Shown one piece after another: positions 188 through 50,689 of a stretch of 54,021 nt of DNA (position 1 is its first letter; each line of letters begins with the position of its first letter). The stretch lies in NCBI GenBank assembly GCA_913030665.1, contig CAJWFS010000007.1, positions 1-54,021 of the forward strand. Reading direction: 5' to 3'. Made by a program: the position numbers and the translations under genes. The stretch comes from an uncultured Acidimicrobiaceae bacterium (lineage in GTDB: Bacteria > Actinomycetota > Acidimicrobiia > Acidimicrobiales > MedAcidi-G1). A model generated the notes under the pieces. It was not told the DNA's origin, ran no database searches, and saw nothing but the letters and a program-made list of their open reading frames with translations.

Positions 188-1437
188 GGCTGGACGGTAG
201 GTGGAGGAATCCGGTAGTTCGGGTCCATCGTCCGTGGGCCCTCGCGTCGAGCCAGGGCCGCAGACACGGCGCCGGTCAGTCGTTCGTCCCTGGCCACCAC
301 GTGGGCCGGGTCCCGTTCGGCGAACTCACCCATGACCTCGCGGGCGAAGAGCTCCATCGACTCGCAGATGTGCTCGTGCCGATTGCGTCCCGCCTGGCTC
401 ACGAAGATCACCTGGTCGATGCCGGCTGCCTCGTACTCCCGGAGCAGTTGGCGGATCTGGTCCGGCGTGCCTATGGCCCCCCTCAGCGAGAGCAGCCCCT
501 CACCCTCCATCCGTGCCCTCAGGCTGACCGCCGTCTGGGAAGCCGTCTTCCGGTCGAACCCGAAGGCGCTGCGGTTCTCCTGGAACTCAGCCCAGATGTC
601 GGTTGTCCCAGGACGGTGGTCGCCGAAACCGTAGAAGTGGCCGAGGGAATAGCCGAAGAAGTGGGCACCGTCGATGCCGCGCTCCAGGGCCGTCTCCTCG
701 TCCTCGTGGCACATGAACGGCAGCACGCAGGCGATGTTGGGGTTGACGGCGAATCCGGCAGGCACGCAGGCCTCGGAGGCGATGATGTCGTGGTACTCGC
801 CCACCCACTGTTCGGCCTCGCCGGGTTCCACGAAGGCGAAGGTGAGGGCGCCCATTCCCTTCTGGGCGGCCAGGTGGATGGTCTCGCGCTGGCTGCAGGC
901 CACCCATAGCGGTGGATGCGGGCGTTGGTACGGCTTGGGTACCACGTTGCGGGGAGGCATCTGGAGCCACGGGCCGTCCCATCCGGTGAACGGTTCCTCG
1001 ACCATCATCCGGGTGGCGGCCTCGATGTGGTCCAGCCACTGCTCCCGCTTGGTGGTCCGGTCTATGGCGAAGCCGTCCAGCTCGGCGTTGGATGACGACT
1101 CGCCTGAGCCGAAGTCGACCCGGCCGTCGGACAGGATGTCCAGCGTGTTGATGCGCTCGACGACCCGGGCCGTGTGGTTGTAGGCGCTGGGCAGGAGGGT
1201 GATGCCGTGTCCCAGCCGGATCCTCTGCGTGCGCTGGCTGGCAGCGGCCAGGAACACCTCCGGTGCGGAACTGTGGCTGTACTCCTCGAGGAAGTGGTGT
1301 TCGACCTCCCACACGTAGTCGTAGCCGAGTCGGTCGGCCAGCTCGACCTGGTCCAGGGCGTCCTTGAGGAGCCGGTGTTCGTCGCCGTCGGACCATGGGC
1401 GGGGCAGTTGGTGCTCGTAGAAGATTCCGAACTTCAT
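184..1437 (-). CDS. LLM class flavin-dependent oxidoreductase (luciferase-like, probably F420 or FMN)
   Basis: The 417-residue protein has the bacterial-luciferase TIM barrel layout: MKFGIFYEHQ at the N-terminus, an EVEHHF segment, LGHGITLLP and then VERINTLDILSDGRVDFGSGES, a hallmark of the family. It should be a cytosolic two-electron oxidoreductase using F420 or FMN; the substrate cannot be read. The start is the ATG at 1437, because homology begins there and a -10 box lies eight bases upstream; the open frame continues upstream but looks non-coding. About 40 C-terminal residues extend past the usual barrel. It is followed by a lipoprotein gene with a 4-base overlap. Confidence 0.88.
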   Translation of the reverse strand: MKFGIFYEHQLPRPWSDGDEHRLLKDALDQVELADRLGYDYVWEVEHHFLEEYSHSSAPEVFLAAASQRTQRIRLGHGITLLPSAYNHTARVVERINTLDILSDGRVDFGSGESSSNAELDGFAIDRTTKREQWLDHIEAATRMMVEEPFTGWDGPWLQMPPRNVVPKPYQRPHPPLWVACSQRETIHLAAQKGMGALTFAFVEPGEAEQWVGEYHDIIASEACVPAGFAVNPNIACVLPFMCHEDEETALERGIDGAHFFGYSLGHFYGFGDHRPGTTDIWAEFQENRSAFGFDRKTASQTAVSLRARMEGEGLLSLRGAIGTPDQIRQLLREYEAAGIDQVIFVSQAGRNRHEHICESMELFAREVMGEFAERDPAHVVARDERLTGAVSAALARREGPRTMDPNYRIPPPTVQP

Positions 1438-1445
1438 CGCACCCG

Positions 1446-1451
1446 ACCTTA
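1446..1451 (-). promoter_or_regulatory. -10 box for the LLM oxidoreductase
   Basis: TAAGGT ends eight bases before the ATG at 1437, with no Shine-Dalgarno between. Transcription would start at or next to the start codon (leaderless). No -35 is recognisable. Confidence 0.5.
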
Positions 1452-1491
1452 GGAGTCGGGGCGCGACAGGGACCGATCGGGAGGCGGGACC

Positions 1492-1497
1492 TAGGGT
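1492..1497 (+). promoter_or_regulatory. -10 box for the YceI gene
   Basis: TAGGGT ends six bases before the ATG at 1504. The six intervening bases (CGGAGG) look like a Shine-Dalgarno but touch the start codon, so they are badly spaced and a leaderless start fits better. Confidence 0.45.
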
Positions 1498-1503
1498 CGG
1501 AGG

Positions 1504-2319
1504 ATGAACAGGCGACGGCTGGCCCGGATGGTTCTCGGTGTTGTGGCGGTGGTCGTCGTCGGCTGGTGGTTCGTGCTCCGATCCGACGCCCCACCCGCCC
1601 CCGACCTGGCATCGGCGGTAGAGACCGCCAGCGTGGCCCAGACCGGTTCCACGGGCGCCACCACCGCTGCTCCCGCTTCCAGCACCGCGACGTCGACGAC
1701 AGCGCCTGCTTACGACGCCACGACGTCGACAACCTCCGCTGCCTCCACCACGGCCCTGCCGGTTGTCGGCCCGGCGGGAACCTGGGCGGTGGATACGAGC
1801 ATCGGCTCGTTCAGCGACTTCACCTCGACCTGGGTCGGCTATCGGGTCGAGGAGGTCTTGGGCAACGGAATCGGATCCAACACGGCGGTTGGGCGCACAC
1901 CCCTGGTGGCCGGGTCCGTGGAACTCTCCGGCGACGCCCTCCTGGCGGTAGAGGTGAGGGCGGACCTGCGCGGCCTGCGGTCCGACAAGGTGTACCGGGA
2001 CGGAAGGGTCGGTAGCGCACTCCACACGGACGACCATCCGACGGCGATCTTCACCCTCGTCGGACCTTTCGCCCTCGGGGACCTGGATGGCGACGGGGTA
2101 TCGGTCGAGGCTGTTGTGGCCGGCACGGTCACAATCAACGGAATGGCCGGCCCGGTCGAGGTGACCATGGCTGCGACCCTGGTCGGTGACGTGGTCACGG
2201 TGGTCGGTTCGTTCCCGATCGTGTTCTCCGACCACGCCGTCGAGGCTCCCGGTGCGTCGATCGTGGTTTCGGTCGAGGACCACGGCATCGTCGAGTTCCA
2301 GTTGTTCTTGACCCGGTGA
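1504..2319 (+). CDS. Membrane-anchored YceI-family protein
   Basis: The 271 residues start with a basic stretch and one membrane anchor (about residues 9-25). A Ser/Thr/Ala-rich linker runs to about residue 85, and a YceI-like lipocalin-fold domain fills the rest: GTWAVDTSIGSFSDFTSTWVG, then VELSGDALLAVEVRADLRGLRSDK and the DDHPTAIFTL segment typical of the family. YceI proteins bind isoprenoid-like or amphiphilic ligands outside the membrane; the ligand here is unknown. Its stop overlaps the start of the MFS gene (GTGA), so the two are probably co-expressed. Confidence 0.85.
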   Translation: MNRRRLARMVLGVVAVVVVGWWFVLRSDAPPAPDLASAVETASVAQTGSTGATTAAPASSTATSTTAPAYDATTSTTSAASTTALPVVGPAGTWAVDTSIGSFSDFTSTWVGYRVEEVLGNGIGSNTAVGRTPLVAGSVELSGDALLAVEVRADLRGLRSDKVYRDGRVGSALHTDDHPTAIFTLVGPFALGDLDGDGVSVEAVVAGTVTINGMAGPVEVTMAATLVGDVVTVVGSFPIVFSDHAVEAPGASIVVSVEDHGIVEFQLFLTR

Positions 2320-3701
2320 GCGGCTCGGCCAGATCGGCCGGGCCGGGAGATCCGGATCGGGCCGGACCGGCAACCGGCGCCAGCCCGTTCAGTTCCCTAC
2401 GCCATCCGGCCTTCGCCCGCTTCGCCGCAGGCCAGGCCCTCTGCGGGACCGCCCAGTTCCTGGGTGGCCTGGCCACGCCCTTCCTGGTGAACCAGCTCAC
2501 CGACTCGAACACGTGGGTGGGGGCCTCGTCATTCGTGGCGCTCATCCCGGCCGTGGTCGGTACCCCTCTCTCAGGCACGCTGGCCGATCGGATGGACCGT
2601 CGCATGCTGCTGCTCGTCGGCCTGTCCCTCCAGGTGCTGGTCATGTCGGTCGTCGTCGGCCTTTACGCGACCGGCGGGTTGACCCCGTGGCGCATCCTCC
2701 TCCTGAACTTCGTAGGCGGCTCGGCGGCTTCGTTCCAGTGGGCACCGATCCAGTCCATGGCGGCGGTGCTGGTGCCCCGGGAATCGCTGGTCGCAGCTGT
2801 TCGGATGGTGTCGATCACCTTCACGGTGGGGCGGTCGGTGGGTCCCGCCATTGCGGCGGTGACCCTCGCCTTCCATGGGCCGGGCCTCGCCTTCGTCGTT
2901 TCGCTGGGCCTCTACGTGGTGGGCCTGGGCATCCTCGCAACCGTGCGTACGACGTGGGCGCCCTCCGGGGCCGACGGGTCCCTCGGCGACCAGTTCCGCG
3001 AGGGTCTGGCGTACGTCCGGGCGAGGCCTGAGATGCGCGTCGCCTTCCGTCTGGCGTTCAGCGTGGCGGGTCTCGGAGCGGTGTTCGCCTTCGCGTTGGC
3101 CGCCGGTGTCGCCGATGACCTGTTCGGGAGGGGCGGTGGTGGGCTGGGGGTTCTGTCCACGAGCCTCGGTGTGGGAGCCCTGCTGGCGAGCGCCTTCATC
3201 AGTGGCCGGGGCGGGCGCATGTCCCGTGCGGTCCTGGAGCGCCGCTCCATCCTCCTCTACGGGGCGGGCCTGCTGGTCGTGGCTTCGTCGTCATGGTTGG
3301 GCGTCGGGATGTTCGGCTACCTCCTGATGGGTGGTGCCCACATGCTCCACGGCACCACGCTGAGTACCTCCCTCCAGCTTCGGGTGGACGAGGAGTTCCG
3401 GGGCCGGGTGATGTCGGTGTTCCTGGTGGCGATCCTGAGCGGGATCCCGATCGGTGGGCTGGCGTTCGGGGTCATCGGTGACCTGGTTGGGTTGCGGTGG
3501 GTCGTCCTGGGAGCGGGGCTGGCGCTCTGGCTGGATGTGGCCGTGACCGGCCGCCGGGGGGCCTTCGCCCTACTCGACCGCGAGGTCGATGAAGTTGGAG
3601 GGTCGGCCGGTGCACCTACCGACGGTCCAGCCGGCCCGTTTGCCGATTCGCCGGATTCGGGGGATGATCGGAGTACTGAAGGTAGGGAGGACCATGGCTG
3701 A
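2316..3701 (+). CDS. MFS transporter
   Basis: The 461-residue protein has about 12 hydrophobic segments beginning near FARFAAGQALCGTAQFLGG, and an MFS loop 2-3 motif (GTLADRMDRRMLLLV). The pattern suits MFS_3/enterobactin-exporter-like efflux carriers; the substrate is unknown. The GTG start at 2316 overlaps the YceI stop. The last 45 residues are a hydrophilic, acidic, Pro/Gly-rich tail, and the next gene begins inside its final codons. Confidence 0.85.
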   Translation: MSGSARSAGPGDPDRAGPATGASPFSSLRHPAFARFAAGQALCGTAQFLGGLATPFLVNQLTDSNTWVGASSFVALIPAVVGTPLSGTLADRMDRRMLLLVGLSLQVLVMSVVVGLYATGGLTPWRILLLNFVGGSAASFQWAPIQSMAAVLVPRESLVAAVRMVSITFTVGRSVGPAIAAVTLAFHGPGLAFVVSLGLYVVGLGILATVRTTWAPSGADGSLGDQFREGLAYVRARPEMRVAFRLAFSVAGLGAVFAFALAAGVADDLFGRGGGGLGVLSTSLGVGALLASAFISGRGGRMSRAVLERRSILLYGAGLLVVASSSWLGVGMFGYLLMGGAHMLHGTTLSTSLQLRVDEEFRGRVMSVFLVAILSGIPIGGLAFGVIGDLVGLRWVVLGAGLALWLDVAVTGRRGAFALLDREVDEVGGSAGAPTDGPAGPFADSPDSGDDRSTEGREDHG

Positions 3702-3939
3702 CAACCGATCTGAACAACTACTCGGCGTGATCGACGCGCTTGATGAGTTGGCTGGTTCCTGTACGCCCGCTGAGGCGGCTGAGCAGTTGGACCCGGTTGT
3801 CCTACAGGCGTTCTGGCGTGACTGGCCACACACCAGCGTGTGGGCCGGCAACCTCTGGCGCACCCTGAACCGCGACCTCGAGGCACCGGCCAGTGAGAGA
3901 CTGGACCGCGATGTCGACGAGGTGGGGGGAAGCGGTTGA
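3694..3939 (+). CDS. Hypothetical small protein (81 aa)
   Basis: No family is recognised. The protein is helical-looking and acidic, beginning MADNRSEQLLGVIDALDELAG and rich in Trp near the centre (FWRDWPHTSVWAGNLW). The ATG at 3694 has a strong GGGAGG at 3685-3690, favouring it over longer upstream readings. The gene overlaps the MFS gene by 8 bases and its stop shares a base with the ATG of the CBS gene. It is therefore embedded in an operon, which supports it being real. Confidence 0.65.
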   Translation: MADNRSEQLLGVIDALDELAGSCTPAEAAEQLDPVVLQAFWRDWPHTSVWAGNLWRTLNRDLEAPASERLDRDVDEVGGSG

Positions 3940-4316
3940 TGGTCGCCCTCGCCGATGTCATGACGCCCGACGTGGTCACCCTCTCGTCCGAAGCCTCGGT
4001 TGGTGATGCCGCCAAGGTGATGGTGCGCGGGGGATTCGGGTCGGTGGTCATCGTCCAGGGTCGGATGCTGCTGGGGATCCTCACCGAACGTGACGTGCTG
4101 CGCGCCGCTGCAGCGGAAGACGACCTCCGGGCCGCTCCGGTTGAGCGGTGGATGACTCCCGAGCCTGATACAGCGCTACCGGACCTTGACACCGAGGAGG
4201 CGGTATCTCTGATGCTGAGCCGCGGCTTCCGACACCTACCGGTGGTCCTCGACGGTGAGCTGCTCGGCATGGTCAGCCTGCGCGACGTTCTCAGCGCCCG
4301 TATAGCGCGTCGCTGA
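3939..4316 (+). CDS. CBS-domain pair protein
   Basis: The 125 residues consist almost only of two CBS motifs: VADVMTPDVVTLSSEASVGD-type followed by LGILTERDVLRA, then VERWMTPEPDTALP followed by LLGMVSLRDVLSARI. Stand-alone CBS pairs (Bateman modules) sense adenine nucleotides or similar ligands. The partner is not obvious. The ATG at 3939 is preferred over the TTG three bases earlier because GGTGGGGGGA at 3921-3930 is better placed. It is coupled by one base to the 81-residue ORF. Confidence 0.85.
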   Translation: MVALADVMTPDVVTLSSEASVGDAAKVMVRGGFGSVVIVQGRMLLGILTERDVLRAAAAEDDLRAAPVERWMTPEPDTALPDLDTEEAVSLMLSRGFRHLPVVLDGELLGMVSLRDVLSARIARR

Positions 4317-4356
4317 GAGGTCTGGCTGAGTCGTCCAGACGGGTTCCGGAGGGACC

Positions 4357-5040
4357 ATGGATTCGGACAGTCAGGACCGTGCGCGGCACACCAACGTGGC
4401 CTGGACGGCGGGCCCCGTATACCTGACCGTCCGGTCTCTCGTCCGGTGCCTGCTCTGGCCCTACTTGCGGACCCGGGTCAGCGGCCGGGAGCACATCCCA
4501 CCGGATGGACCGGTGATCCTGGCCCCTGTCCACCGCTCCAATCTGGACTCCCTGATGCTCTCGCCGTTGACGCGTCGGCGCCTTCGGGCCCTGGCCAAGG
4601 AGAGCCTGTTCAAGGCAGCGCCGATGGCGTGGCTGCTCGCCTCCCTGGGGGCCTTCCCGGTGCGTCGGGACTCGGCCGACCGGGAATCGATGCGCATCGC
4701 CCGGGAACTGCTGGCCGAGGAAAATCTGCTCCTCGTCTTTCCGGAGGGGACGCGGCACGAAGGTGACCGGGTGGCCGAGTTGTTCGACGGGACGGCGTGG
4801 TTGGCTGCAAGGACGGGATCCAGGGTCGTGCCCGTGGGCATAGCCGGTACCGGCCATGCGATGCCGACCGGGGCACGGCTGCCACGGCCTGCGAAGGTCC
4901 GGATGGTCGTCGGGCCGGCCATCCCGCCGCCGGAGCCGAAGGCCTCACGAAGTGCCCTGCGGGCCTGGACGGAGGGCCTGGCTTCCGCCCTGCAGGCCGC
5001 ACAGGACGAGGCGGTAGGGGGCCGGACGGGAAGGGACTGA
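4357..5040 (+). CDS. plsC: 1-acyl-sn-glycerol-3-phosphate acyltransferase family protein
   Basis: The 227-residue PlsC-fold enzyme has the HX4D catalytic motif (H59-R-S-N-L-D64) and the FPEGTR phosphate-binding motif at 128-133, with GRE near 43-45 ahead of them. It probably acylates lysophosphatidate or a related glycerophospholipid at the membrane. GGAGGG sits just before the ATG. It follows the CBS gene after 40 bp on the same strand. Substrate specificity cannot be told from the sequence. Confidence 0.88.
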   Translation: MDSDSQDRARHTNVAWTAGPVYLTVRSLVRCLLWPYLRTRVSGREHIPPDGPVILAPVHRSNLDSLMLSPLTRRRLRALAKESLFKAAPMAWLLASLGAFPVRRDSADRESMRIARELLAEENLLLVFPEGTRHEGDRVAELFDGTAWLAARTGSRVVPVGIAGTGHAMPTGARLPRPAKVRMVVGPAIPPPEPKASRSALRAWTEGLASALQAAQDEAVGGRTGRD

Positions 5041-5059
5041 GCCTGGTCGCTGCCTGTCC

Positions 5060-5104
5060 GGGCCGGGTCGGCCCTACAGCGGTCGGACTTCCGACGGGTC
5101 GCTG
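5060..5104 (+). terminator. Two hairpins after plsC
   Basis: GGGCCG-GGT-CGGCCC (5060-5074) is followed by CAGCG-GTCGG-ACTT-CCGAC-GGGT-CGCTG (5077-5104). They lie just after the plsC stop. No U-tract follows, so intrinsic termination is uncertain. Confidence 0.35.
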
Positions 5105-5197
5105 CCGAGGTTCTGTCGCCGGTCTGTGAGGGTCTTGCCGCCGGGCCACGAAGGTTCCGACACCGGTCTGCTGCTCCGGGGGTGGCAGGGTGGACCA

Positions 5198-6805: not shown

Positions 6806-6811
6806 AATGTA
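6806..6811 (-). promoter_or_regulatory. -10 box for the amidotransferase gene
   Basis: TACATT ends seven bases before the ATG at 6798, and no Shine-Dalgarno lies between them. Confidence 0.5.
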
Positions 6812-6834: not shown

Positions 6835-6840
6835 GAGACT
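6835..6840 (+). promoter_or_regulatory. Variant -10 box for rarD
   Basis: GAGACT ends six bases before the GTG at 6847. It keeps the second-position A and final T of the -10 consensus but not the first T. Confidence 0.3.
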
Positions 6841-8268: not shown

Positions 8269-8274
8269 AGTGTG
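8269..8274 (-). promoter_or_regulatory. Variant -10 box for the flavodoxin gene
   Basis: CACACT ends six bases before the GTG at 8262. It matches the -10 at positions 2 and 6 only. Confidence 0.3.
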
Positions 8275-8295: not shown

Positions 8296-8301
8296 TACAC
8301 T
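8296..8301 (+). promoter_or_regulatory. -10 box for the FmdB-like gene
   Basis: TACACT ends seven bases before the GTG at 8309. Confidence 0.45.
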
Positions 8302-10844: not shown

Positions 10845-10850
10845 ACCGTA
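10845..10850 (-). promoter_or_regulatory. -10 box for surE
   Basis: TACGGT ends eight bases before the ATG at 10836, inside the 36-bp gap after the ABC-F gene. surE therefore probably has its own transcript. Confidence 0.45.
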
Positions 10851-12816: not shown

Positions 12817-12822
12817 AGGGTA
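12817..12822 (-). promoter_or_regulatory. -10 box for the ABC-F gene
   Basis: TACCCT ends six bases before the GTG at 12810. Confidence 0.5.
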
Positions 12823-13915: not shown

Positions 13916-13921
13916 TAGGGT
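13916..13921 (+). promoter_or_regulatory. -10 box for the CysQ-like gene
   Basis: TAGGGT ends nine bases before the ATG at 13931. The spacing is slightly longer than at the other sites, so a very short leader is possible. Confidence 0.4.
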
Positions 13922-16194: not shown

Positions 16195-16200
16195 GAGACT
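16195..16200 (+). promoter_or_regulatory. Variant -10 box for the FAH-family gene
   Basis: GAGACT ends eight bases before the ATG at 16209. It is the same variant hexamer as that before rarD. Confidence 0.28.
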
Positions 16201-18797: not shown

Positions 18798-18803
18798 AAC
18801 CTA
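18798..18803 (-). promoter_or_regulatory. -10 box for the fumarase gene
   Basis: TAGGTT ends six bases before the ATG at 18791. Confidence 0.5.
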
Positions 18804-19934: not shown

Positions 19935-19940
19935 ACGGTA
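19935..19940 (-). promoter_or_regulatory. -10 box for the second LLM gene
   Basis: TACCGT ends seven bases before the ATG at 19927. Confidence 0.5.
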
Positions 19941-19960: not shown

Positions 19961-19966
19961 TAGTGT
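19961..19966 (+). promoter_or_regulatory. Possible -10 box for the histidine phosphatase gene
   Basis: TAGTGT ends ten bases before the ATG at 19977. This is the longest spacing among the sites listed, so a leader of two or three bases is likely. Confidence 0.3.
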
Positions 19967-19976
19967 CCGGCCGGCC

Positions 19977-20600
19977 ATGGAACTGCTCCTCATCCGACAC
20001 GCCCTCCCGGTCACCGTGGACAACACGGCCACCGGGGAGGAGGCCGATCCCTGCCTTTCGGCCCTTGGACTACGCCAGGCCGAGGCCCTGGCCGACTGGC
20101 TGACAGAGGGTCCGACGGCCGAGGCGGGCATCGACGCCGTCTACACCAGCCCCAAGGCCCGGGCTCGTGAGACGGTGGCGCCCCTGGCTCGACGCCTGGG
20201 CCTGGAAATGGCCATCGAGCCGATGGTGACCGAGTACGACGAGGGCGAGGTCGAGTACGTGCCCATGGAGCGGCTGAAGGCCATGGGCGACCCCCGCTGG
20301 GACCAGATAATGGCCGGCGACGACATCTCCGATCCCGAGGCCTTCCGTGACCAGGTGGTGACCGGGATGGACCGGATAATCGCCGCCAACCCGGGTCGGA
20401 CGGTGGCCGTGGGCTGCCACGGAGGCGTGGTCTCCGCCTATCTGTCGCACGTCCTGGGCATCAATTCCGTGCTGTTCTACGAGGCCCGTTACACGTCGAT
20501 CAGCCGGGTGGCTGCGTCGTCGTCCGGGCATCGCACCATGAGGTCCGTGAACGAACTGGGCCACCTCCAGGTGGCCGGTGTGCCGTTGCACGAGTTCTGA
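19977..20600 (+). CDS. Histidine phosphatase family protein (phosphoglycerate-mutase-like)
   Basis: The 207-residue protein has the catalytic Arg7-His8 (LLIRHALP), YTSPKARARET and the second catalytic His in GCHGG. Members dephosphorylate sugar phosphates or other small molecules through a phosphohistidine. The substrate is not inferable. It converges on the acetoacetyl-CoA synthetase gene. Confidence 0.86.
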   Translation: MELLLIRHALPVTVDNTATGEEADPCLSALGLRQAEALADWLTEGPTAEAGIDAVYTSPKARARETVAPLARRLGLEMAIEPMVTEYDEGEVEYVPMERLKAMGDPRWDQIMAGDDISDPEAFRDQVVTGMDRIIAANPGRTVAVGCHGGVVSAYLSHVLGINSVLFYEARYTSISRVAASSSGHRTMRSVNELGHLQVAGVPLHEF

Positions 20601-22571: not shown

Positions 22572-22577
22572 AGGTTA
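22572..22577 (-). promoter_or_regulatory. -10 box for acetoacetyl-CoA synthetase
   Basis: TAACCT ends seven bases before the ATG at 22564. Confidence 0.5.
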
Positions 22578-22609: not shown

Positions 22610-22615
22610 CAGACT
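22610..22615 (+). promoter_or_regulatory. Variant -10 box for the MaoC gene
   Basis: CAGACT ends six bases before the ATG at 22622. Confidence 0.3.
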
Positions 22616-23157: not shown

Positions 23158-23163
23158 TAGGCT
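23158..23163 (+). promoter_or_regulatory. -10 box for the Fur-family gene
   Basis: TAGGCT ends eight bases before the ATG at 23172; the gap is TGGCGCCC, which has no ribosome-binding character. Confidence 0.5.
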
Positions 23164-23680: not shown

Positions 23681-23686
23681 TAGGTT
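23681..23686 (+). promoter_or_regulatory. -10 box for the Nudix gene
   Basis: TAGGTT ends eight bases before the ATG at 23695, within the 52-bp gap after the Fur-family gene. Confidence 0.5.
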
Positions 23687-24827: not shown

Positions 24828-24833
24828 ACGGTA
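24828..24833 (-). promoter_or_regulatory. -10 box for the TetR gene
   Basis: TACCGT ends six bases before the ATG at 24821. The regulator is thus separable from the membrane-protein gene upstream. Confidence 0.5.
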
Positions 24834-28019: not shown

Positions 28020-28025
28020 AGGGTA
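28020..28025 (-). promoter_or_regulatory. -10 box for the septum-formation lipoprotein
   Basis: TACCCT ends six bases before the ATG at 28013. Confidence 0.5.
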
Positions 28026-28036: not shown

Positions 28037-28042
28037 TACCGT
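28037..28042 (+). promoter_or_regulatory. -10 box for the ccm operon
   Basis: TACCGT ends six bases before the GTG at 28049. This decides between GTG 28049 and the in-frame ATG 28025 as the ccmA start. Confidence 0.5.
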
Positions 28043-36137: not shown

Positions 36138-36143
36138 ATTCTA
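36138..36143 (-). promoter_or_regulatory. -10 box for the SufR-like regulator
   Basis: TAGAAT, the closest match to TATAAT in this set, ends six bases before the ATG at 36131. Confidence 0.55.
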
Positions 36144-39256: not shown

Positions 39257-39262
39257 TAGGGT
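39257..39262 (+). promoter_or_regulatory. -10 box for the mini-ORF and gdpD
   Basis: TAGGGT ends seven bases before the GTG at 39270, which opens a 16-codon frame, and 54 bases before the phosphodiesterase start. Confidence 0.45.
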
Positions 39263-39269
39263 CGGCTAC

Positions 39270-39320
39270 GTGAACGGTCGACCGCCCGCGTCGGGCATCC
39301 ATGCACGGAGGCCCTCGTGA
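39270..39320 (+). CDS. Leaderless 16-codon mini-ORF (possible leader peptide)
   Basis: A GTG seven bases after a -10 box opens a frame of 16 codons, MNGRPPASGIHARRPS, rich in Arg and Pro. Its TGA overlaps the GTG of the phosphodiesterase gene (GTGA). It also contains that gene's GGAGG. Placement suggests a coupled leader peptide, but nothing proves translation. Confidence 0.35.
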   Translation: MNGRPPASGIHARRPS

Positions 39321-41268: not shown

Positions 41269-41274
41269 ACCATA
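41269..41274 (-). promoter_or_regulatory. -10 box retained by the gene remnant
   Basis: TATGGT ends six bases before the ATG at 41262. It may now drive the lipid kinase gene downstream. Confidence 0.45.
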
Positions 41275-41362: not shown

Positions 41363-41368
41363 CACACT
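41363..41368 (+). promoter_or_regulatory. Variant -10 box for etfB
   Basis: CACACT ends seven bases before the ATG at 41376, and no Shine-Dalgarno is present. Confidence 0.3.
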
Positions 41369-45503: not shown

Positions 45504-45509
45504 AGCCTA
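45504..45509 (-). promoter_or_regulatory. -10 box for DUF3090
   Basis: TAGGCT ends seven bases before the ATG at 45496. Confidence 0.5.
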
Positions 45510-45538: not shown

Positions 45539-46195
45539 TCACGAGGGGCCCAGTCCGACCAGCCGCCCGGTCGAGTTGACGGTCAGCACCGTGGGCCTCT
45601 CAGGGCCGTGGAGCACCGCGCTGACAGAGCACGGGCCGACCACGAGGCGTTGGAACAGGTCCAGGGGGGTGCCGAGGGCCTGGGCCAGCGCCGCCTTGAT
45701 GGGATCCGCATGCGACACGCAGACGATGGTCTCGCCGGGGTGGCGTGCGACCAGGTCGGCGACCTGGCCGGTGATCCGGGCCTGCATCTCGGCGAACGAC
45801 TCGCCCTTCGGGAACCTGAAGGCCGAGGGTTGGCGCTGCACCGTGGACCACGCCTTCAGCTTTATGAGGTCCTTCAGGCGACGCCCGGTCCAGGCGCCGA
45901 ACTCGCACTCGATGAGCCCGGAAGCGGTCCGGACCCGTCTACCGACAGCCCGGGCGATCGGTGCGGCGGTCTCCCGCGTGCGTTCCATGGGCGAGGAGTA
46001 GACGGCGGCCACGCCTCGGCCGGGTAGGTGGTCTGCCACCTCGGCCACGTGCGCGGCCACCGCCTCGGCCTGGGAGCGGCCCTCGTCGGAGAGGTGCAGG
46101 CCCGGTGCCCGGCCGGGGAGTCGGGCACCGGTGGTCGGGGTGCGTCCGTGGCGTACATAGAGAACCAGCGTCGGTGACCGGTTGTTTGCTGCCAT
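45539..46195 (-). CDS. MSMEG_4193-family histidine phosphatase
   Basis: The 218-residue protein has the catalytic Arg15-His16 (LYVRHGRTP), VYSSPMERTRET, a conserved CEFGAWTGRRLKDL and VSHADPIK with the second His. This matches the actinobacterial putative phosphomutase family whose type is MSMEG_4193. It probably opposes or complements the kinase two genes downstream. It starts 24 bp from the divergent DNA glycosylase. Confidence 0.85.
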   Translation of the reverse strand: MAANNRSPTLVLYVRHGRTPTTGARLPGRAPGLHLSDEGRSQAEAVAAHVAEVADHLPGRGVAAVYSSPMERTRETAAPIARAVGRRVRTASGLIECEFGAWTGRRLKDLIKLKAWSTVQRQPSAFRFPKGESFAEMQARITGQVADLVARHPGETIVCVSHADPIKAALAQALGTPLDLFQRLVVGPCSVSAVLHGPERPTVLTVNSTGRLVGLGPS

Positions 46196-46203
46196 GGCCG
46201 CCG

Positions 46204-46213
46204 AACCTACCCT
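46204..46213. promoter_or_regulatory. Overlapping divergent -10 boxes (phosphatase and UDG genes)
   Basis: On the minus strand TAGGTT (46209-46204) ends eight bases before ATG 46195. On the plus strand TACCCT (46208-46213) ends six bases before ATG 46220. The two hexamers share the TA at 46208-46209, in a spacer of only 24 bp. Confidence 0.55.
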
Positions 46214-46219
46214 GCCACC

Positions 46220-46897
46220 ATGGACGGACGCCGACTGCTGCTGGCGGTGCACGACGAGGTGGTGGAATGCCGTGCCTGCCCGCGTCTGGTGGAGTGGCGG
46301 GAGCAGGTGGCGATCCGGAAGCGGGCCGCCTACCTGGACCAGGACTACTGGGGGAGACCGGTACCGGGGTTCGGCGACCCGCGCGCCCGGATACTCATCG
46401 TGGGCCTGGCGCCTGCGGCCCACGGGGCCAACCGGACAGGCCGGGTGTTCACCGGCGACCGGTCGGGTGACTTCCTGTTCGCTGCGCTCCACCGGGTCGG
46501 GTTGGCCAACCAGCCGGAGGCGGTCGGGCCCGACGACGGCCTCCGGCTGACCGACGTGTTCATCACAGCGCCTGTCAAGTGCGCCCCGCCGGCGAACAAG
46601 CCGACTCCGGACGAGAGGGCGGCCTGCCGACCCTTCTTCCAGCGGGAGGTGGCCGCCTTGGATCGGGTCGGCGTAGTGGTGGTCCTGGGCCAGATCGGCT
46701 ACGTGGCCACAGCGGCGGAGCTCGGGCTACGGCCCCGACCGAAGTTCGGCCATGGCGTGGAGGCCCGGCTTTCCGACGGTCGGACGATCCTCTGCTCGTA
46801 TCACGTCAGCCAGCAGAACACCTTCACCGGTCGCCTCACGGAGCCCATGTTCGATGCGGTGCTGGTACGAGCCATGGAGCTGGCTGCAGCGGTTTGA
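46220..46897 (+). CDS. Type 5 uracil-DNA glycosylase (UdgB-like)
   Basis: The 225-residue protein has the family 5 motif LIVGLAPAAHGANRTGR, which replaces the catalytic residue pattern of family 1. YHVSQQNTFTGRLT is the second motif. Cysteines at ECRACPRL, VKCAPP and AACRPF are placed as in [4Fe-4S] UDGs. It removes uracil and other deaminated bases from DNA. Confidence 0.88.
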   Translation: MDGRRLLLAVHDEVVECRACPRLVEWREQVAIRKRAAYLDQDYWGRPVPGFGDPRARILIVGLAPAAHGANRTGRVFTGDRSGDFLFAALHRVGLANQPEAVGPDDGLRLTDVFITAPVKCAPPANKPTPDERAACRPFFQREVAALDRVGVVVVLGQIGYVATAAELGLRPRPKFGHGVEARLSDGRTILCSYHVSQQNTFTGRLTEPMFDAVLVRAMELAAAV

Positions 46898-46925
46898 TCC
46901 CGCCCGGAGGTCGGGGGACCGCCGA

Positions 46926-46931
46926 TAGCCT
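46926..46931 (+). promoter_or_regulatory. -10 box for the small lipoprotein
   Basis: TAGCCT ends seven bases before the GTG at 46939. Confidence 0.5.
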
Positions 46932-46938
46932 CTGCGCC

Positions 46939-47289
46939 GTGATCCGATTCCGCCGCCTCCTCGCCCTGGTCGCCGTCATGTTCCTGGTCGCAGGCTGCAT
47001 GGCTTCCGGTGAGCCGGTCTCGTGGGAGGACCAGGCGGACGAGTCCGGCGAGGGACTCGTGGAACGCGAGTTCACCGCCGCCTGCATGGAGGCCAATGAC
47101 GACCTCTCCGAGGCGAAGTCCAGGGGGTTCTGCGAATGCGTGCTGGACGGGGTGCAGGCAGCGGTCACCTTCGAGCAGTTCACCGAACTCGACGACTTCA
47201 TCGACAAGCACCGCGACGACGTGACCGCGGCGATGCTGGGAGAGCACTTCGGCTGGTTGGTGGAGGCCACGGACGCCTGCGCCACCTGA
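46939..47289 (+). CDS. Small lipoprotein of unknown function
   Basis: The 116-residue protein has a signal peptide and lipobox LVAGC, then an acidic helical domain with a cysteine pair in AKSRGFCECVLDGVQ and further Cys at AACMEAND and TDACAT. The spacing resembles small actinobacterial lipoproteins of unknown role. The GTG at 46939 is fixed by the signal peptide and by the -10 box. Confidence 0.75.
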   Translation: MIRFRRLLALVAVMFLVAGCMASGEPVSWEDQADESGEGLVEREFTAACMEANDDLSEAKSRGFCECVLDGVQAAVTFEQFTELDDFIDKHRDDVTAAMLGEHFGWLVEATDACAT

Positions 47290-47320
47290 TCGATCCTCGG
47301 ATGGGGAGCCCCGTTCGACC

Positions 47321-47335
47321 GCCGGCCCTGCCGGC
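47321..47335. terminator. Hairpin between convergent lipoprotein and FrhB-like genes
   Basis: GCCGGC-CCT-GCCGGC lies in the 86-bp spacer between the two stops. The loop is tight and no U-tract follows. Confidence 0.25.
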
Positions 47336-47375
47336 TCCCGCTGGTGCTCGTGTCGAGGGTTCCAGTTTCGCCGGT

Positions 47376-48530
47376 TCAGCCGGCCCTGACCGGTAGGCCG
47401 ACCCGGGCGCTGTCGTTGGCCCAGACCGGCCACCGGGCCCGGCTCTTGGCGGCCAGCTTGTGCATCAGGGCGATGGCTCCGGGGTCGCTGTCGCCCGGCC
47501 GACCTTCGATCACACCCTCCTCGAGCATCTTCATGATGATCTGACGGCCCAACTCGGTCCGCACGACCGTGAGGGTCCAGTCGTTGTTCTCACCGATGCC
47601 ACCGGTCGAGATGTCGGCGTGCTCGGCGGCGAAGTCGGGGCAGAGGGTGCAGCCCTCACGGGTCCAGGCGTGGCACTCCTTGAGGTTCACCTCGTGGTAG
47701 TCGCCGTTTCGCATCCAGATCTGGAACACGCCCTTGATGTTCATCTTGACCATCTCCTCCTTGCGGAGGCGGTACTTGGCCCAGAACAACTCCTCGAAGA
47801 TCGAGTCGTCGAACGACTTGGAGCAGAGCAGGCCGATGTTCAACTTGATGGGCCTGCCTGCCTTGCCGACCCGGCGGTGCCACATGACGGGTCCGATCGA
47901 GGTCTGGCAGCTCATGCCGACCAGCGCCAGGGCGCTCAGCCCCTGTTCGAGGGCCTGCGGCATGGCCAGCGTGTTGGCCGAGTAGGTGTAGCGGCTGCCG
48001 GCGCCTGCCAGGACCGACTCCCTGTCGGTGGCCAGTGCCGGGACGGCCTTCCAGCTACTGGACCCGTCGGCACCCGGCTTCTCCAGGTGGCTGGTCAGGG
48101 CGCCGTCGATGATCCCGTTCTCGAGGCACCAGATGAGGATGGCCGAGACCAGGCCGCCGTCCTGGCCCATGGCATGGACCGTCTCGTCGCTGGCCCGGGT
48201 GAGCAGGACGTCCTTGTAGACGCCGGACATCTCGTCCGGGCGGCGCTCCCGTCCGAAGAGGTGCTGGTCGGCCTCGGTCTCCCAGCTGCGGAACCGGGGG
48301 CAGGCCCGTGTGCACGACGTACAGCCCTTCTGGCCGTGGCCGCAGTCGGTCGCTCCTAGGTCGTCTTCCAGGTGGAACGGCGTGTACTTCCCGGGCTCGT
48401 GCTCGTATCCGATGACGTCGTGTGGACACGCGATCACACAACCTGCGCAACCCGTGCAGAGGCCGGTGTCGATGACCTCCTCGTAGAGCTCCTTCCACTG
48501 GAAGGACCATTTCTCGCGGGTTGCGGCCAT
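47376..48530 (-). CDS. Coenzyme F420 hydrogenase/dehydrogenase beta-subunit (FrhB) family protein
   Basis: The 384-residue protein opens with a two-cluster ferredoxin domain (TGCAGCVIACP, then DCGHGQKGCTSCTRACP). The FrhB core follows, with GQDGGLVSAILIWCLENG, VGMSCQTS, LNIGLLCSKSF and CTLCPDFAAEHADIS. FrhB proteins move electrons between F420H2, FAD and Fe-S centres. No hydrogenase subunits are nearby, so the partner is unknown. ATG 48530 is set by the ferredoxin start and a -10 box. Confidence 0.85.
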   Translation of the reverse strand: MAATREKWSFQWKELYEEVIDTGLCTGCAGCVIACPHDVIGYEHEPGKYTPFHLEDDLGATDCGHGQKGCTSCTRACPRFRSWETEADQHLFGRERRPDEMSGVYKDVLLTRASDETVHAMGQDGGLVSAILIWCLENGIIDGALTSHLEKPGADGSSSWKAVPALATDRESVLAGAGSRYTYSANTLAMPQALEQGLSALALVGMSCQTSIGPVMWHRRVGKAGRPIKLNIGLLCSKSFDDSIFEELFWAKYRLRKEEMVKMNIKGVFQIWMRNGDYHEVNLKECHAWTREGCTLCPDFAAEHADISTGGIGENNDWTLTVVRTELGRQIIMKMLEEGVIEGRPGDSDPGAIALMHKLAAKSRARWPVWANDSARVGLPVRAG

Positions 48531-48537
48531 CGGTGTC

Positions 48538-48543
48538 ACCCTA
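48538..48543 (-). promoter_or_regulatory. -10 box for the FrhB-like gene
   Basis: TAGGGT ends seven bases before the ATG at 48530. GGGT within it could also serve as a weak Shine-Dalgarno. Confidence 0.45.
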
Positions 48544-48622
48544 CCCATCGGCGTTGGAGGCAGCCGGATCCGAGCCGGACGCGACGAAGTGCCGCTCGCC
48601 CCTTGGGTTGGCGGCACCTTGA

Positions 48623-48697
48623 TGGTGCCCCTGGCGGGACTCGAACCCACGCTCACGGCTCCGGAAGCCGATGCTCTATCCACTGAGCTACAGGGGC
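48623..48697 (-). tRNA. tRNA-Arg (anticodon CCG), CCA encoded
   Basis: On the minus strand the acceptor stem GCCCCTG pairs with CAGGGGC, the D stem GCTC with GAGC, and the anticodon loop reads TTCCGGA (CCG at 34-36). The T arm is GTGGG-TTCGAGT-CCCGC. The discriminator is A and the next three bases are CCA, so the 3' end is encoded. The first anticodon-stem pair is a U-U mismatch and the variable loop has four bases. Confidence 0.93.
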
Positions 48698-48979
48698 TGG
48701 GACGGGTCAGGCTACCGGCCCGGTAGTCGGGCACGGCCGGGTGTCGACGGCTGCATCTGGCTACTTCCCGCAGGTAGGTGCCTTCGCCATGGACAAGGCC
48801 AGGCCGATTGAGGCAACGGGCGTGACGAATGGCCAAGGACGCCACCGCCCCTGGCCCACCGCTCTTCCTTCGAGTTGCAGCCTCCCGGTCGCCATCCGAG
48901 ATCCCCAGGCGGCCGATCGCTGCTGACGCCTACGATCCCCAAGCCCGGACAGAAGAAAGAATGAAGTGCAGGAGGAACA
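48698..48979. other. Intergenic region between tRNA-Arg and dienelactone hydrolase
   Basis: About 280 bp without a credible gene. TACGAT at 48931-48936 is a possible -10, giving a leader of roughly 37 bases that carries AGGAGG at 48970-48975. No -35 match or structured RNA was recognised. It is the longest gene-free stretch in the window. Confidence 0.5.
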
Positions 48980-49678
48980 ATGAGCGGAACAACGGTCGAG
49001 TTCGCGGCCAACGGGACGACGGCTGGTGGCTACCTGGCGTTGCCGGACGGAGGGAGCGGACCCGGCGTGGTCGTCCTCCAGGAGTGGTGGGGCCTGGTGC
49101 CCCAGATCCGGGGGGTCTGTGATCGCCTGGCCGGTGAGGGCTTCGTGGCCCTCGCCCCCGACCTCTACCACGGCGAGTTCGCCGAGCACACGGAGATGGA
49201 CAGGGCCGGGGAGCTCATGACCTCGTTGCCGCCGGACCGGGCAGCCCGAGACATGTCGGGCGCCATCGACTTCCTCCTGGCCGACGAGGCGACCACCGGA
49301 GATGTCGTCGGGGTGACGGGCTTCTGCATGGGCGGGATGCTTACCCTGATGATTGCCGCCCTTGAGGGTGACCGGGTGGCTGCGGCGGCGCCGTTCTACG
49401 GGGCGCCACTCGGTCGAGAACAATTCGACATGGACTGGTCGGGCCTGAGCGCGAAGGTCGAGGGCCACTTCGCCGCCAACGACGACTTCTTCCCACCGGA
49501 GGCCATCACGGCCCTGGGCGACGACCTCCGGGAGGCGGGCCACGACGTTGTGTTCCACGTGTACGAGGGGACCGGGCACGGCTTCGCCAACGAGGAAAAC
49601 CCGCTGGGCACCTGGGACGAGGCAGCGGCCGCCACGGCGTGGGGTAGGACCGTGGAGTTCCTTCGCTCCCACCTCTGA
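48980..49678 (+). CDS. Dienelactone hydrolase family protein
   Basis: The 232-residue alpha/beta hydrolase has the DLH features: Glu35 (QEWWGL), nucleophile Cys116 (TGFCMGG), an Asp at 168-169 (AANDDF) and His200 (GTGHGFAN). It hydrolyses enol-lactones or related esters in the cytosol; the substrate here is unknown. It is one of the few genes with a textbook Shine-Dalgarno (AGGAGG, 48970-48975). Confidence 0.88.
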   Translation: MSGTTVEFAANGTTAGGYLALPDGGSGPGVVVLQEWWGLVPQIRGVCDRLAGEGFVALAPDLYHGEFAEHTEMDRAGELMTSLPPDRAARDMSGAIDFLLADEATTGDVVGVTGFCMGGMLTLMIAALEGDRVAAAAPFYGAPLGREQFDMDWSGLSAKVEGHFAANDDFFPPEAITALGDDLREAGHDVVFHVYEGTGHGFANEENPLGTWDEAAAATAWGRTVEFLRSHL

Positions 49679-49737
49679 TCCCGCAGGGATCTCCGTGGGT
49701 CGGTGCCCCAGAGGCCCGTCATTCCCGGTGGTAACCC

Positions 49738-50676
49738 TCAGGCCGGGTCAGAGGCCAGAAGCGCCGCACCCAGCGCCCCGGCATCGGCTCCTAGTTGGGC
49801 CAGCACCACGTCGACCACCGGACGGGAATCGGCTCCCGGCAGGAGGCCACCCAGCGCCGCGGCCACGCCTGCCCGCAGGGGCTCGCCCACGTCGGCCAGT
49901 CCGCCACCCAGCACGATGCGCGACAGGTCCAGGAGCACGACCAGGTTGGCCACGCCCCTGGCCACCTCGGTGCACCAGTCGGTGAAGACGGCCTGTGCGG
50001 GCTGGTCGCCCTCGGCAACGGCATCCATCACGTGGTGGCCGGTGATTCCCCCGGCCGACCCGGCCAACTGGATTCCCCGGGGGAACGTTCCGGTCGAGGC
50101 AGCCTCCCGTCCAAGGCGTCCCAGGGCGTTTCCCGAGGCGTAGTACTCCCATGGCCCGCGGTGTCCGGTGAGGTGTACTGGGCCGTCGGCCGACACCACC
50201 ATGTGCCCGGGCTCTCCTGAGAAGCCGTTGGCACCCGTGTGGAGCCGTCCTCCCAGGACGAAGCCGCCTCCGATCCCCGTACCCAGGGTGACCAGGGCGA
50301 AGTCGTCGCAGTCCCGGCCCGCACCCAGCCTGGCTTCGGCGAGCGTGGCGGTGGTGGCGTCGTTGCCAACGGCAACCGGTAGTCCGACGGCGCGTTCCAG
50401 GTCCGGGCCGACCGGGTGGCCGACTGCTCCGGGCAGGTTCGGCGACCAGGCGACGGTTCCGGAGCGCCCGGCCAACCCGGCGATACCCAGGCCCACGGCG
50501 CTTACCGGTTCTGGGCTGTGCTTCCGGAGGCCGCCCACCATCGTCGCCAGGCTCTCCACTAGAGCGGGCCCGTTGCCATGGCTGGTGGTGCGTTCCCGTC
50601 CGACGATGGCCCAGGTGGTCGGATCCACCAGCAGAGCGGATGCCTTGCTGCCCCCGACGTCGATGCCGATCAGCAT
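49738..50676 (-). CDS. ROK-family sugar kinase or regulator-like protein
   Basis: The 312-residue protein has the phosphate loop GIDVGGSKASALLVD, catalytic Asp in VGNDATTATLAEA and the ROK block LGTGIGGGFVLGGRL, GANGFSGEPGHM. The zinc-binding CxCGxxGC is lost: the segment reads HLTGHRGPWEYYASG with all three cysteines replaced. N-terminal DNA-binding helices are absent, so it is a kinase, not a repressor. It has its own promoter downstream of the phn genes. Confidence 0.83.
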   Translation of the reverse strand: MLIGIDVGGSKASALLVDPTTWAIVGRERTTSHGNGPALVESLATMVGGLRKHSPEPVSAVGLGIAGLAGRSGTVAWSPNLPGAVGHPVGPDLERAVGLPVAVGNDATTATLAEARLGAGRDCDDFALVTLGTGIGGGFVLGGRLHTGANGFSGEPGHMVVSADGPVHLTGHRGPWEYYASGNALGRLGREAASTGTFPRGIQLAGSAGGITGHHVMDAVAEGDQPAQAVFTDWCTEVARGVANLVVLLDLSRIVLGGGLADVGEPLRAGVAAALGGLLPGADSRPVVDVVLAQLGADAGALGAALLASDPA

Positions 50677-50683
50677 GGTTCCG

Positions 50684-50689
50684 AGGCTA
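50684..50689 (-). promoter_or_regulatory. -10 box for the ROK gene
   Basis: TAGCCT ends seven bases before the ATG at 50676, within the 36-bp gap after the second permease. Confidence 0.5.

What the first reader, a model, noticed from the sequence alone, without database searches (positions are those of the whole stretch)
1437..50689. Leaderless-transcript promoter signature before most transcription units
A TANNNT hexamer ends 6-8 bases (9 for the CysQ-like gene, 10 for the phosphatase at 19977) before the start codon of about 25 frames at 1437, 1504, 6798, 8309, 10836, 12810, 13931, 18791, 19927, 19977, 22564, 23172, 23695, 24821, 28013, 28049, 36131, 39270, 41262, 45496, 46195, 46220, 46939, 48530 and 50676. 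Five more starts (6847, 8262, 16209, 22622, 41376) have xANNNT variants at the same distance. Most lack a Shine-Dalgarno, while genes inside operons have one or overlap the preceding stop. This is what a -10 element placed for transcription starting at the A/G of the start codon would give. Leaderless mRNAs are known to be common in actinobacteria; the density and rigid spacing here suggest they are the default for first genes in this lineage, with hpf and the dienelactone hydrolase as leadered exceptions.
Basis: partly seen in the sequence, partly recalled or inferred. Interest (0 to 1): 0.72.

Follow-up and report, generated by a model that had tools for sequence, protein, structure and literature searches.

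The report
Leaderless gene promoters in Acidimicrobiia
In this uncultured actinobacterium a six-base promoter box sits so close to many start codons that the messenger RNA should begin at the start codon itself, a known habit of the phylum; here the box is also kept out of genes about sevenfold, and one copy serves two opposite genes in many members of the order.

Summary
Observation confirmed: all 25 listed starts have TANNNT 6-10 bases upstream. With starts called blind to the motif in 43% of the genome, TANNNT stands at gaps 6-9 before 144 of 814 starts against 4.2 expected. Orthologues in seven relatives keep it (116 of 136 cells, against 10 of 193 for other starts). Shine-Dalgarno-like motifs are rare there (8 of 144) and no -35 signal is seen. 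Leaderless transcription from -10-only promoters is the best reading; no 5' end was mapped. It is a known kind: Streptomyces and Actinomadura loci give the same peak, and Zheng 2011 and Cortes 2013 describe it. 'Default' is overstated: about half of divergent first genes (129 of 230, about 9% background). Beyond the finding: TANNNT is depleted in coding DNA on both strands (ratio 0.14; E. coli 0.8); the five variants fit a second motif, [CG]A[GC]ACT; and the 46195/46220 pair shares one bidirectional -10 box, present in 24 of 24 readable family genomes and 17 of 27 other order genomes where the genes adjoin.

The parts
1446..1451 (-). TAAGGT, -10 for start 1437 (-), gap 8
   Evidence: orthologues 4 of 4
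1492..1497 (+). TAGGGT, -10 for start 1504 (+), gap 6
   Evidence: orthologues 2 of 3
6806..6811 (-). TACATT, -10 for start 6798 (-), gap 7
   Evidence: orthologues 5 of 6
8296..8301 (+). TACACT, -10 for start 8309 (+), gap 7
   Evidence: orthologues 3 of 3
10845..10850 (-). TACGGT, -10 for start 10836 (-), gap 8
   Evidence: orthologues 7 of 7
12817..12822 (-). TACCCT, -10 for start 12810 (-), ABC-F protein, gap 6
   Evidence: orthologues 5 of 7
13916..13921 (+). TAGGGT, -10 for start 13931 (+), inositol-monophosphatase family, gap 9
   Evidence: orthologues 5 of 7
18798..18803 (-). TAGGTT, -10 for start 18791 (-), class I fumarase, gap 6
   Evidence: orthologues 7 of 7
19935..19940 (-). TACCGT, -10 for start 19927 (-), luciferase-like monooxygenase, gap 7
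   Evidence: orthologues 7 of 7
19961..19966 (+). TAGTGT, -10 for start 19977 (+), gap 10 (8-10 in orthologues)
   Evidence: orthologues 7 of 7
22572..22577 (-). TAACCT, -10 for start 22564 (-), gap 7
   Evidence: orthologues 5 of 5
23158..23163 (+). TAGGCT, -10 for start 23172 (+), gap 8
   Evidence: orthologues 4 of 5
23681..23686 (+). TAGGTT, -10 for start 23695 (+), gap 8, not conserved
   Evidence: orthologues 0 of 7
24828..24833 (-). TACCGT, -10 for start 24821 (-), gap 6
   Evidence: orthologues 3 of 6
28020..28025 (-). TACCCT, -10 for start 28013 (-), gap 6
   Evidence: orthologues 4 of 4
28037..28042 (+). TACCGT, -10 for start 28049 (+), gap 6; start 36 bases from 28013
   Evidence: orthologues 7 of 7
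36138..36143 (-). TAGAAT, -10 for start 36131 (-), gap 6
   Evidence: orthologues 7 of 7
39257..39262 (+). TAGGGT before GTG 39270: a 16-codon reading frame whose stop overlaps the start of the gene at 39317
   Evidence: frame read from the sequence
41269..41274 (-). TATGGT, -10 for start 41262 (-), gap 6
   Evidence: orthologues 1 of 1
45504..45509 (-). TAGGCT, -10 for start 45496 (-), gap 7
   Evidence: orthologues 6 of 7
46204..46213 (.). AACCTACCCT: one bidirectional -10 box; minus hexamer 46204-46209 for start 46195 (histidine phosphatase superfamily), plus hexamer 46208-46213 for start 46220 (uracil-DNA glycosylase superfamily); the TA at 46208-46209 is common to both
   Evidence: shared box in 24 of 24 readable family genomes and 17 of 27 other order genomes with the genes adjacent
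46926..46931 (+). TAGCCT, -10 for start 46939 (+), gap 7
   Evidence: orthologues 4 of 4
48538..48543 (-). TAGGGT, -10 for start 48530 (-), gap 7
   Evidence: orthologues 5 of 6
50684..50689 (-). TAGCCT, -10 for start 50676 (-), gap 7
   Evidence: orthologues 4 of 5
6835..6840 (+). GAGACT, second-motif -10 for start 6847 (+), gap 6
8269..8274 (-). CACACT, second-motif -10 for start 8262 (-), gap 6
16195..16200 (+). GAGACT, second-motif -10 for start 16209 (+), gap 8
22610..22615 (+). CAGACT, second-motif -10 for start 22622 (+), gap 6
41363..41368 (+). CACACT, second-motif -10 for start 41376 (+), ETF-domain protein, gap 7

Best explanation
The TANNNT boxes are -10 elements of housekeeping-type promoters that need no recognisable -35 element. 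RNA polymerase starts about 6-9 bases downstream of the box, at or within about three bases of the A or G of the start codon, so the mRNAs are leaderless and are translated without a Shine-Dalgarno. Genes inside operons and roughly half of divergent first genes use Shine-Dalgarno-led or other starts instead. Because a bare TANNNT is nearly enough to fire, selection keeps it out of coding DNA on both strands. A second, rarer -10 form ([CG]A[GC]ACT) at the same distance works the same way for a subset of genes. Shown: position, enrichment, conservation, lack of Shine-Dalgarno, depletion in coding DNA. Inferred: the transcription start points, the sigma factor, the translation route, selection as the cause of the depletion.
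For: 25 of 25 boxes present. Motif-blind peak at gaps 6-9, near zero at neighbouring gaps and at internal start-like codons. Orthologous starts keep TANNNT in 116 of 136 cells against 10 of 193 for other starts (seven related genomes, so cells are not independent). Shine-Dalgarno-like 4-mers before 8 of 144 TANNNT starts, 120 of 325 other first genes, 140 of 327 remaining genes, 2410 of 16257 internal controls. No -35 information upstream of 207 aligned boxes, as Cortes 2013 reports for M. tuberculosis (passages). TANNNT depleted in coding DNA, observed/expected 0.14 (95% bootstrap 0.126-0.156), while TANNNA/C/G are 0.65-1.05. 205 of the 810 TANNNT in 829 kb lie 6-9 bases before a start (starts refined with the motif in the model). 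No TTG among 144 such starts.
Against: No transcript data. Gaps of 9-11 would leave a few untranslated bases. 23695 is not conserved (0 of 7) and 24821 only half (3 of 6). The mixture model of 227 mostly operon-internal genes leaderless, and applied to shuffled upstream sequence it still of 444 against 159 real, so its fractions are upper estimates. When starts may be moved, decoy hexamers rise too (GANNNT 79 against TANNNT 121). The start-anchored base-identity profile shows only a modest rise at the box, which I put down to shifts of the gap by a base or two.
Confidence: 0.93

Rival explanations
1. The boxes are real promoters but the assigned start codons are wrong: the true starts lie further downstream and the mRNAs carry short leaders with Shine-Dalgarno sites.
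For: It holds for at least one listed site: 39270 lies 47 bases upstream of the start 39317, which has a predicted Shine-Dalgarno.
Against: Starts chosen by coding score alone already give the peak; orthologues align from within the first 12 residues with the box at a similar distance; Shine-Dalgarno-like motifs are rarer before these starts (8 of 144) than before internal start-like codons (2410 of 16257).
Confidence: 0.04
2. The boxes are not promoters but an AT-rich, unstructured patch that helps translation initiation on leadered mRNAs.
For: AT-rich starts are known to help initiation (recalled, not from a call).
Against: In the fitted matrix only T, A and the last T are fixed and the middle is mostly G or C; TNNNAT and ANNNTA are far rarer at the same distance (blind 14 and 2 against 84; the commonest decoy, GANNNT, 22); the depletion is on both strands of coding DNA; the 46195/46220 box fits both strands.
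Confidence: 0.02
3. The five xANNNT variants are just weak TANNNT boxes of the same promoter class.
For: Same distance to the start, same lack of Shine-Dalgarno (1 of 17); xAGGAT (9 against 3.0) and xAGGCT (6 against 2.0) are mildly raised in the own genome, and degenerate xANNNT as a whole is raised in the Streptomyces group (93 against 50.7) and Actinomadura (41 against 20.0); the sigma-factor link tested for a separate class failed.
Against: [CG]A[GC]ACT stands out in the own genome (17 of 814 starts against 2.2 expected) while the remaining xANNNT, those two included, are not raised (58 against 69.0). Replication in four other family genomes: 5 of 385 against 0.83, other xANNNT 47 against 47.2. 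Orthologues of 6847, 8262, 16209 and 22622 never switch to TANNNT (0 of 23 cells).
Confidence: 0.35

Closest known systems
Bacterial leaderless genes with TA-like signals (Zheng et al. 2011, PMC3160421; passages read)
   Same: TANNNT about 12 bases upstream of the start, counted from its first T; actinobacterial average 19.2% of genes (range 2.3-29.8).
   Different: Little: here 144 of 814 blind starts (18%), or 260 of 821 by the mixture model (32%, inflated by false positives). 'Acidimicrobium' does not occur in that paper's main text.
Mycobacterium tuberculosis leaderless transcriptome (Cortes et al. 2013, PMC3898074; passages read)
   Same: TANNNT -10, no -35 consensus, 26% of genes with a primary start site leaderless; close divergent promoters, with one pair (prpD and its regulator) both leaderless.
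   Different: About 16,400 TANNNT in that genome; here 810 in 829 kb, roughly a quarter of that density if its genome is 4.4 Mb (size recalled), not corrected for base composition.
Bidirectional bacterial promoters (Warman 2021, not held; read through passages of PMC10268837, and PMC12825309)
   Same: Two start points from one symmetrical -10 region; 18 bp is the usual spacing, 10 and 23 bp are also common, with small variations.
   Different: At 46195/46220 both transcripts would be leaderless mRNAs, so the box also sets both start codons, 25-26 bases apart in the family; the two papers read do not mention leaderless (0 occurrences in each).
Selection against spurious -10 motifs (Froula and Francino 2007, PMC1939733; passages read)
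   Same: -10 motifs under-represented in coding DNA of 24 of 42 genomes (over-represented in 9).
   Different: They counted sets of hexamers against shuffled sequence; here one three-letter motif is at 0.14 of a synonymous-codon shuffle.

Membership tests
Leaderless genes with a TANNNT -10 (actinobacterial type) | TANNNT at a fixed distance of about 6-9 bases from the start codon, above chance | tested here: met
Leaderless genes with a TANNNT -10 (actinobacterial type) | No Shine-Dalgarno before the start | tested here: met
   8 of 144 against 120 of 325 and 140 of 327
Leaderless genes with a TANNNT -10 (actinobacterial type) | Conserved in orthologues | tested here: met
   116 of 136 cells against 10 of 193
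Leaderless genes with a TANNNT -10 (actinobacterial type) | Primary 5' end at the start codon | not testable with these tools
   no RNA data among the tools
Bidirectional promoter at 46195/46220 | Overlapping -10 hexamers on opposite strands with a conserved symmetric core | tested here: met
   AACCTACCCT with shared TA; 24 of 24 family, 17 of 27 other order genomes
Bidirectional promoter at 46195/46220 | Transcription in both directions | not testable with these tools
   no RNA data among the tools
Extended -10 promoter (for the [CG]A[GC]ACT motif) | G at -14 just upstream of the hexamer | tested here: inconclusive
   10 of 13 own sites outside the window against 58 of 144 TANNNT sites; replication 3 of 5, below the 70% set beforehand
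Promoters of the third sigma factor (for the [CG]A[GC]ACT motif) | Motif present where the sigma gene is present and absent where it is not | tested here: not met
   4 of 332 genes in four genomes with it, 5 of 373 in four without

The most novel reading that the evidence does not exclude
In this order of Acidimicrobiia the promoter has shrunk to a bare TANNNT placed one discriminator length from the start codon; it is so nearly sufficient that coding DNA is purged of it about sevenfold on both strands, a second leaderless -10 ([CG]A[GC]ACT, its AGACT form concentrated in this family) serves a separate gene set, and a single ten-base bidirectional box has held the two start codons of a phosphatase/uracil-DNA glycosylase pair 23-31 bases apart in most order members read where the two genes adjoin.
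Probability: 0.5. Interest if true: 0.68.

Novelty: new member of a known kind. Interest (0 to 1): 0.5.

Why it matters
Leaderless transcription is documented in mycobacteria, corynebacteria, streptomycetes and others (search listing); a search for 'leaderless' with 'Acidimicrobiia' found one paper, which names the class only in an anti-Shine-Dalgarno table (the library lacks most subscription journals). If true, start codons in these uncultured lineages can be set from DNA alone, promoter maps can be drawn from sequence, and the depth of the depletion gives a sequence-only gauge of how sufficient a -10 box is for transcription. The shared box is a natural model of how one RNA polymerase site serves two genes.

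Tried and rejected
One search gave 0 of 488 for the Streptomyces group; I put this down to the gene caller having trained on wrong frames. Seeded with the own model it called the fumarase gene in 80 of 80 loci and gave 127 of 664; one search is discarded.

Idea that a third sigma factor (contig C11, region 2.4 reading YATFWIRQAIGRAL, with G where E. coli sigma-70 has T440; the E. coli residue is recalled) reads [CG]A[GC]ACT: the sigma gene is patchy in the order, but the motif does not follow it. Rejected.

Idea that the [CG]A[GC]ACT genes form an acyl-CoA regulon: 4 of 17 against 7 of 144 TANNNT genes (Fisher p 0.018, post hoc). Pfam tallies: 26 of the 28 own hits, and 80 of the 164 TANNNT proteins. 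Left as a lead.

G at -14 in that set missed its preset replication threshold (3 of 5).

A second own-genome pair with the same geometry (Mur ligase / D-Ala-D-Ala ligase, contig C1 29812/29837): the ten-base box ACCCTACGAT is visible in 15 of 15 readable same-genus loci, but with in-frame starts both genes are leaderless from it in only 6 of 15; in other genera of the family 0 of 6 adjacent, in other families 2 of 4 adjacent, with box sequences of their own. A third regex match (C23 9391/9415) was not followed up.

For the 46220 gene, loci of 66 genomes were looked at (25 family, 30 other order, 11 other class). In one search only the best 30 of 84 matching genomes had loci, so only 11 of the 61 matching genomes outside the order were read.

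Full report
WHAT THE WINDOW IS. The window is contig C7 of a 1.94 Mb, 177-contig, 88% complete genome, GC about 69%. Its fumarase is 97% identical to that of an Acidimicrobiia MAG, UWMA-0264, and 82-83% to those of an Acidimicrobiia MAG (SZUA-1145) and an Actinomycetota MAG (NIOZ-UU63). No 16S gene was found in the assembly, so the anti-Shine-Dalgarno was not read; PMC10783764 lists UCACCUCCUU for Acidimicrobiia (passages).

THE OBSERVATION. All 25 listed starts have TANNNT at gap 6-10 and all five variants are as described. To avoid circularity I wrote a dicodon gene caller that picks starts by coding score and a start-codon prior only. On 454 kb (window plus 20 stretches) it gave 459 genes. 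Before 440 usable starts TANNNT occurs 33, 26, 15 and 10 times at gaps 6, 7, 8 and 9 and 0-4 times at every other gap from 0 to 39. Shuffling each upstream 45-mer gives 4.2 on average for gaps 6-8, at most 11 in 200 rounds, against 74 observed; 9390 internal in-frame start-like codons give a flat profile. Decoy hexamers at the same gaps are rarer: the commonest, GANNNT, 22 (some of these are the second motif below), then TNNNAT, TCNNNT and CANNNT 14 each, ANNNTA 2, against 84. When starts may be moved within a coding-score limit the contrast is smaller (TANNNT 121, GANNNT 79, CANNNT 56). With 829 kb (821 genes) the counts at gaps 6-9 are 56, 46, 26 and 14, and 144 of 814 starts with at least 50 bases upstream against 4.2 expected from gaps 14-37.

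WHO HAS IT. A three-part mixture model (leaderless -10, Shine-Dalgarno, neither) that may move a start when coding evidence is weak finds the leaderless class in 129 of 230 divergent genes, 46 of 101 genes with a 41-80 base gap, 32 of 125 with a longer gap, 28 of 123 with 11-40 and 20 of 227 with 10 or less. The last group is mostly operon-internal and serves as a false-positive guide; on shuffled upstream sequence the smaller-sample model still of 444 against 159 real. So about half of divergent first genes are leaderless, and 'default' is too strong. Counting the table, the window has 24 of 39 first-gene candidates in the class, more than the sample's 207 of 456.

NO SHINE-DALGARNO, NO -35. 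AGGA, GGAG or GAGG occurs in the 14 bases ending 3 bases before the start for 8 of 144 TANNNT starts, 120 of 325 other first genes, 140 of 327 remaining genes and 2410 of 16257 internal start-like codons. Aligning 207 boxes, no position upstream of the hexamer exceeds 0.12 bits of information; the -35 region is at or below 0.07.

CONSERVATION. The window is largely syntenic in the family. I fetched the matching stretches from seven relatives. At starts where the own genome has TANNNT, 116 of 136 orthologue cells have TANNNT at gap 6-10 of a start within eight codons; at other starts, the five variants left out, 10 of 193. The seven relatives are related to each other, so cells are not independent.

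OTHER GROUPS. Same pipeline, TANNNT at 6-9 before blind starts: three nearest named relatives 21 of 61, other Acidimicrobiia 42 of 189, Streptomyces group 127 of 664, Actinomadura 40 of 211, other Actinobacteria 24 of 190; eight genomes from other families of the order together 105 of 705 (5 of 87 to 20 of 104 each); four more family genomes 51 of 385.

THE DEPLETION. Only 810 TANNNT occur on both strands of 829 kb, and 205 of them lie 6-9 bases before a (refined) start. Against within-gene synonymous-codon shuffles, TANNNT in coding DNA is at 207/1396 (0.15) on the sense and 169/1286 (0.13) on the antisense strand; TANNNA is 0.71/0.65, TANNNC 0.85/0.85, TANNNG 1.05/1.05. The bootstrap interval over 803 genes is 0.126-0.156. 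After a TAC codon the next codon ends in T in 65 of 3827 cases, after GAC in 1118 of 14426. The same test gives 0.30/0.29 and 0.34/0.34 in two sets of other family genomes, 0.07-0.38 (sense) and 0.08-0.43 (antisense) in eight other order genomes (where TANNNA is also low, 0.36-0.74), 0.21/0.23 in other Acidimicrobiia, 0.33/0.29 in the Streptomyces group, 0.53/0.32 in Actinomadura, 0.26/0.25 in other Actinobacteria and 0.79/0.80 in 42 kb of E. coli coding DNA, where 45 annotated starts show no peak at 6-9 (1 hit). So the depletion is shared by the actinobacterial sets tested and deepest in parts of this order. AGACT, the core of the second motif, is also depleted (0.49 sense, 0.32 antisense), with other hexamers at 0.62/0.98 (CAGTCA), 0.94/0.91 (GAGACA) and 0.84/0.76 (CAGACC); this is weaker evidence. 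Selection against spurious promoters is described (PMC1939733, passages; PMC4128351, passages). My searches listed no report that I recognised as a depletion this deep, but I read only passages of those two papers and most subscription journals are not held.

SECOND MOTIF. I chose this motif after seeing them. In 814 own blind starts it occurs 17 times at gap 6-9 against 2.2 expected from upstream gaps, 13 of them outside the window; the other xANNNT with x not T are at 58 against 69.0, though within them xAGGAT (9 against 3.0) and xAGGCT (6 against 2.0) are raised. It occurs in 12 of 364 starts of the syntenic relatives (partly orthologues of the window sites), 6 of 61 in the nearest named relatives, 4 of 189 in other Acidimicrobiia, 1 of 190 in other Actinobacteria and 1 of 64 in unclassified actinobacterial MAGs, but 0 of 664 in the Streptomyces group and 0 of 211 in Actinomadura (these loci surround one gene and are not independent). 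In eight genomes of other families of the order it is at 9 of 705 with controls summing to about 1.1, but its AGACT form at only 1 of 705, against 15 of 814 in the own genome. A preset replication in four other family genomes gave 5 of 385 against 0.83, a sixfold excess as predicted. From the orthologue rows printed, counted by eye, 17 of 23 cells of 6847, 8262, 16209 and 22622 keep [CG]A[GC]ACT at the start and 0 of 23 have TANNNT; 41376 is left out because that table used start 41337, though one search lists its orthologues with the motif in G006, G001, G003 and G021. Which sigma factor reads it is open.

THE SHARED BOX. Starts 46195 (histidine phosphatase superfamily) and 46220 (uracil-DNA glycosylase superfamily) are 25 bases apart. 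Their -10 hexamers overlap so that the TA of one is the TA of the other: CAT-N8-AACCTACCCT-N6-ATG. By my geometry this is the 23-bp class of bidirectional promoters reported for E. coli, with small variation allowed (PMC12825309, passage). In the family 24 of 24 readable loci (of 25) have the shared box between in-frame starts 25 or 26 bases apart; in other families of the order 17 of 27 loci where the two genes are adjacent (of 30 readable), at 23-31 bases; outside the order the genes are adjacent in 0 of 11 loci read. Ten adjacent order loci lack it; some of these show two separate boxes by eye. Across the Acidimicrobiia sets 12 of 359 divergent gene pairs have ANNNTANNNT so placed, 6 of them this same pair in related genomes, against 3 hits in total for seven decoy patterns; in the Streptomyces, Actinomadura and other set 0 of 230, decoys 3. 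A paper search for leaderless, bidirectional promoter and divergent together listed three papers, none about such a bacterial pair by title and start of abstract.

VERDICT. The finding is right in substance and of a known kind. What is worth a second look is the depth of the depletion, the second -10 motif and the conserved shared box.

Noticed in passing
window 39257-39320: TAGGGT before a 16-codon frame (GTG 39270) whose stop TGA overlaps the GTG of the gene at 39317: a possible leaderless upstream ORF coupled to it. In relatives G003 and G012 TANNNT sits directly before a start of that gene.
   Followed up: partly
G000 contig C1 29812/29837 (L162 9812/9837): Mur ligase and D-Ala-D-Ala ligase genes diverge from one shared -10 box; both leaderless from it in 6 of 15 same-genus loci with adjacent genes.
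   Followed up: yes
L242/L245 (G000 contig C11, 3-521): A third sigma-70-like protein with a region 2.4/3.0 unlike the two others; its 173-aa piece is 91-99% identical in 21 of 24 other family genomes and patchy in the rest of the order.
   Followed up: partly
genes with [CG]A[GC]ACT starts, for example window 22622 and 41376: Several encode acyl-CoA or electron-transfer-flavoprotein functions; 4 of 17 against 7 of 144 TANNNT genes, post hoc.
   Followed up: partly
window 28013/28049 and 6798/6847: Other very close divergent pairs called leaderless on both sides, start codons 36 and 49 bases apart, so each promoter's upstream region runs close to or into the other gene.
   Followed up: no
window 19961-19966: The box for 19977 keeps an unusual gap of 8-10 in 7 of 7 relatives, so a leader of a few bases may be kept there.
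   Followed up: no
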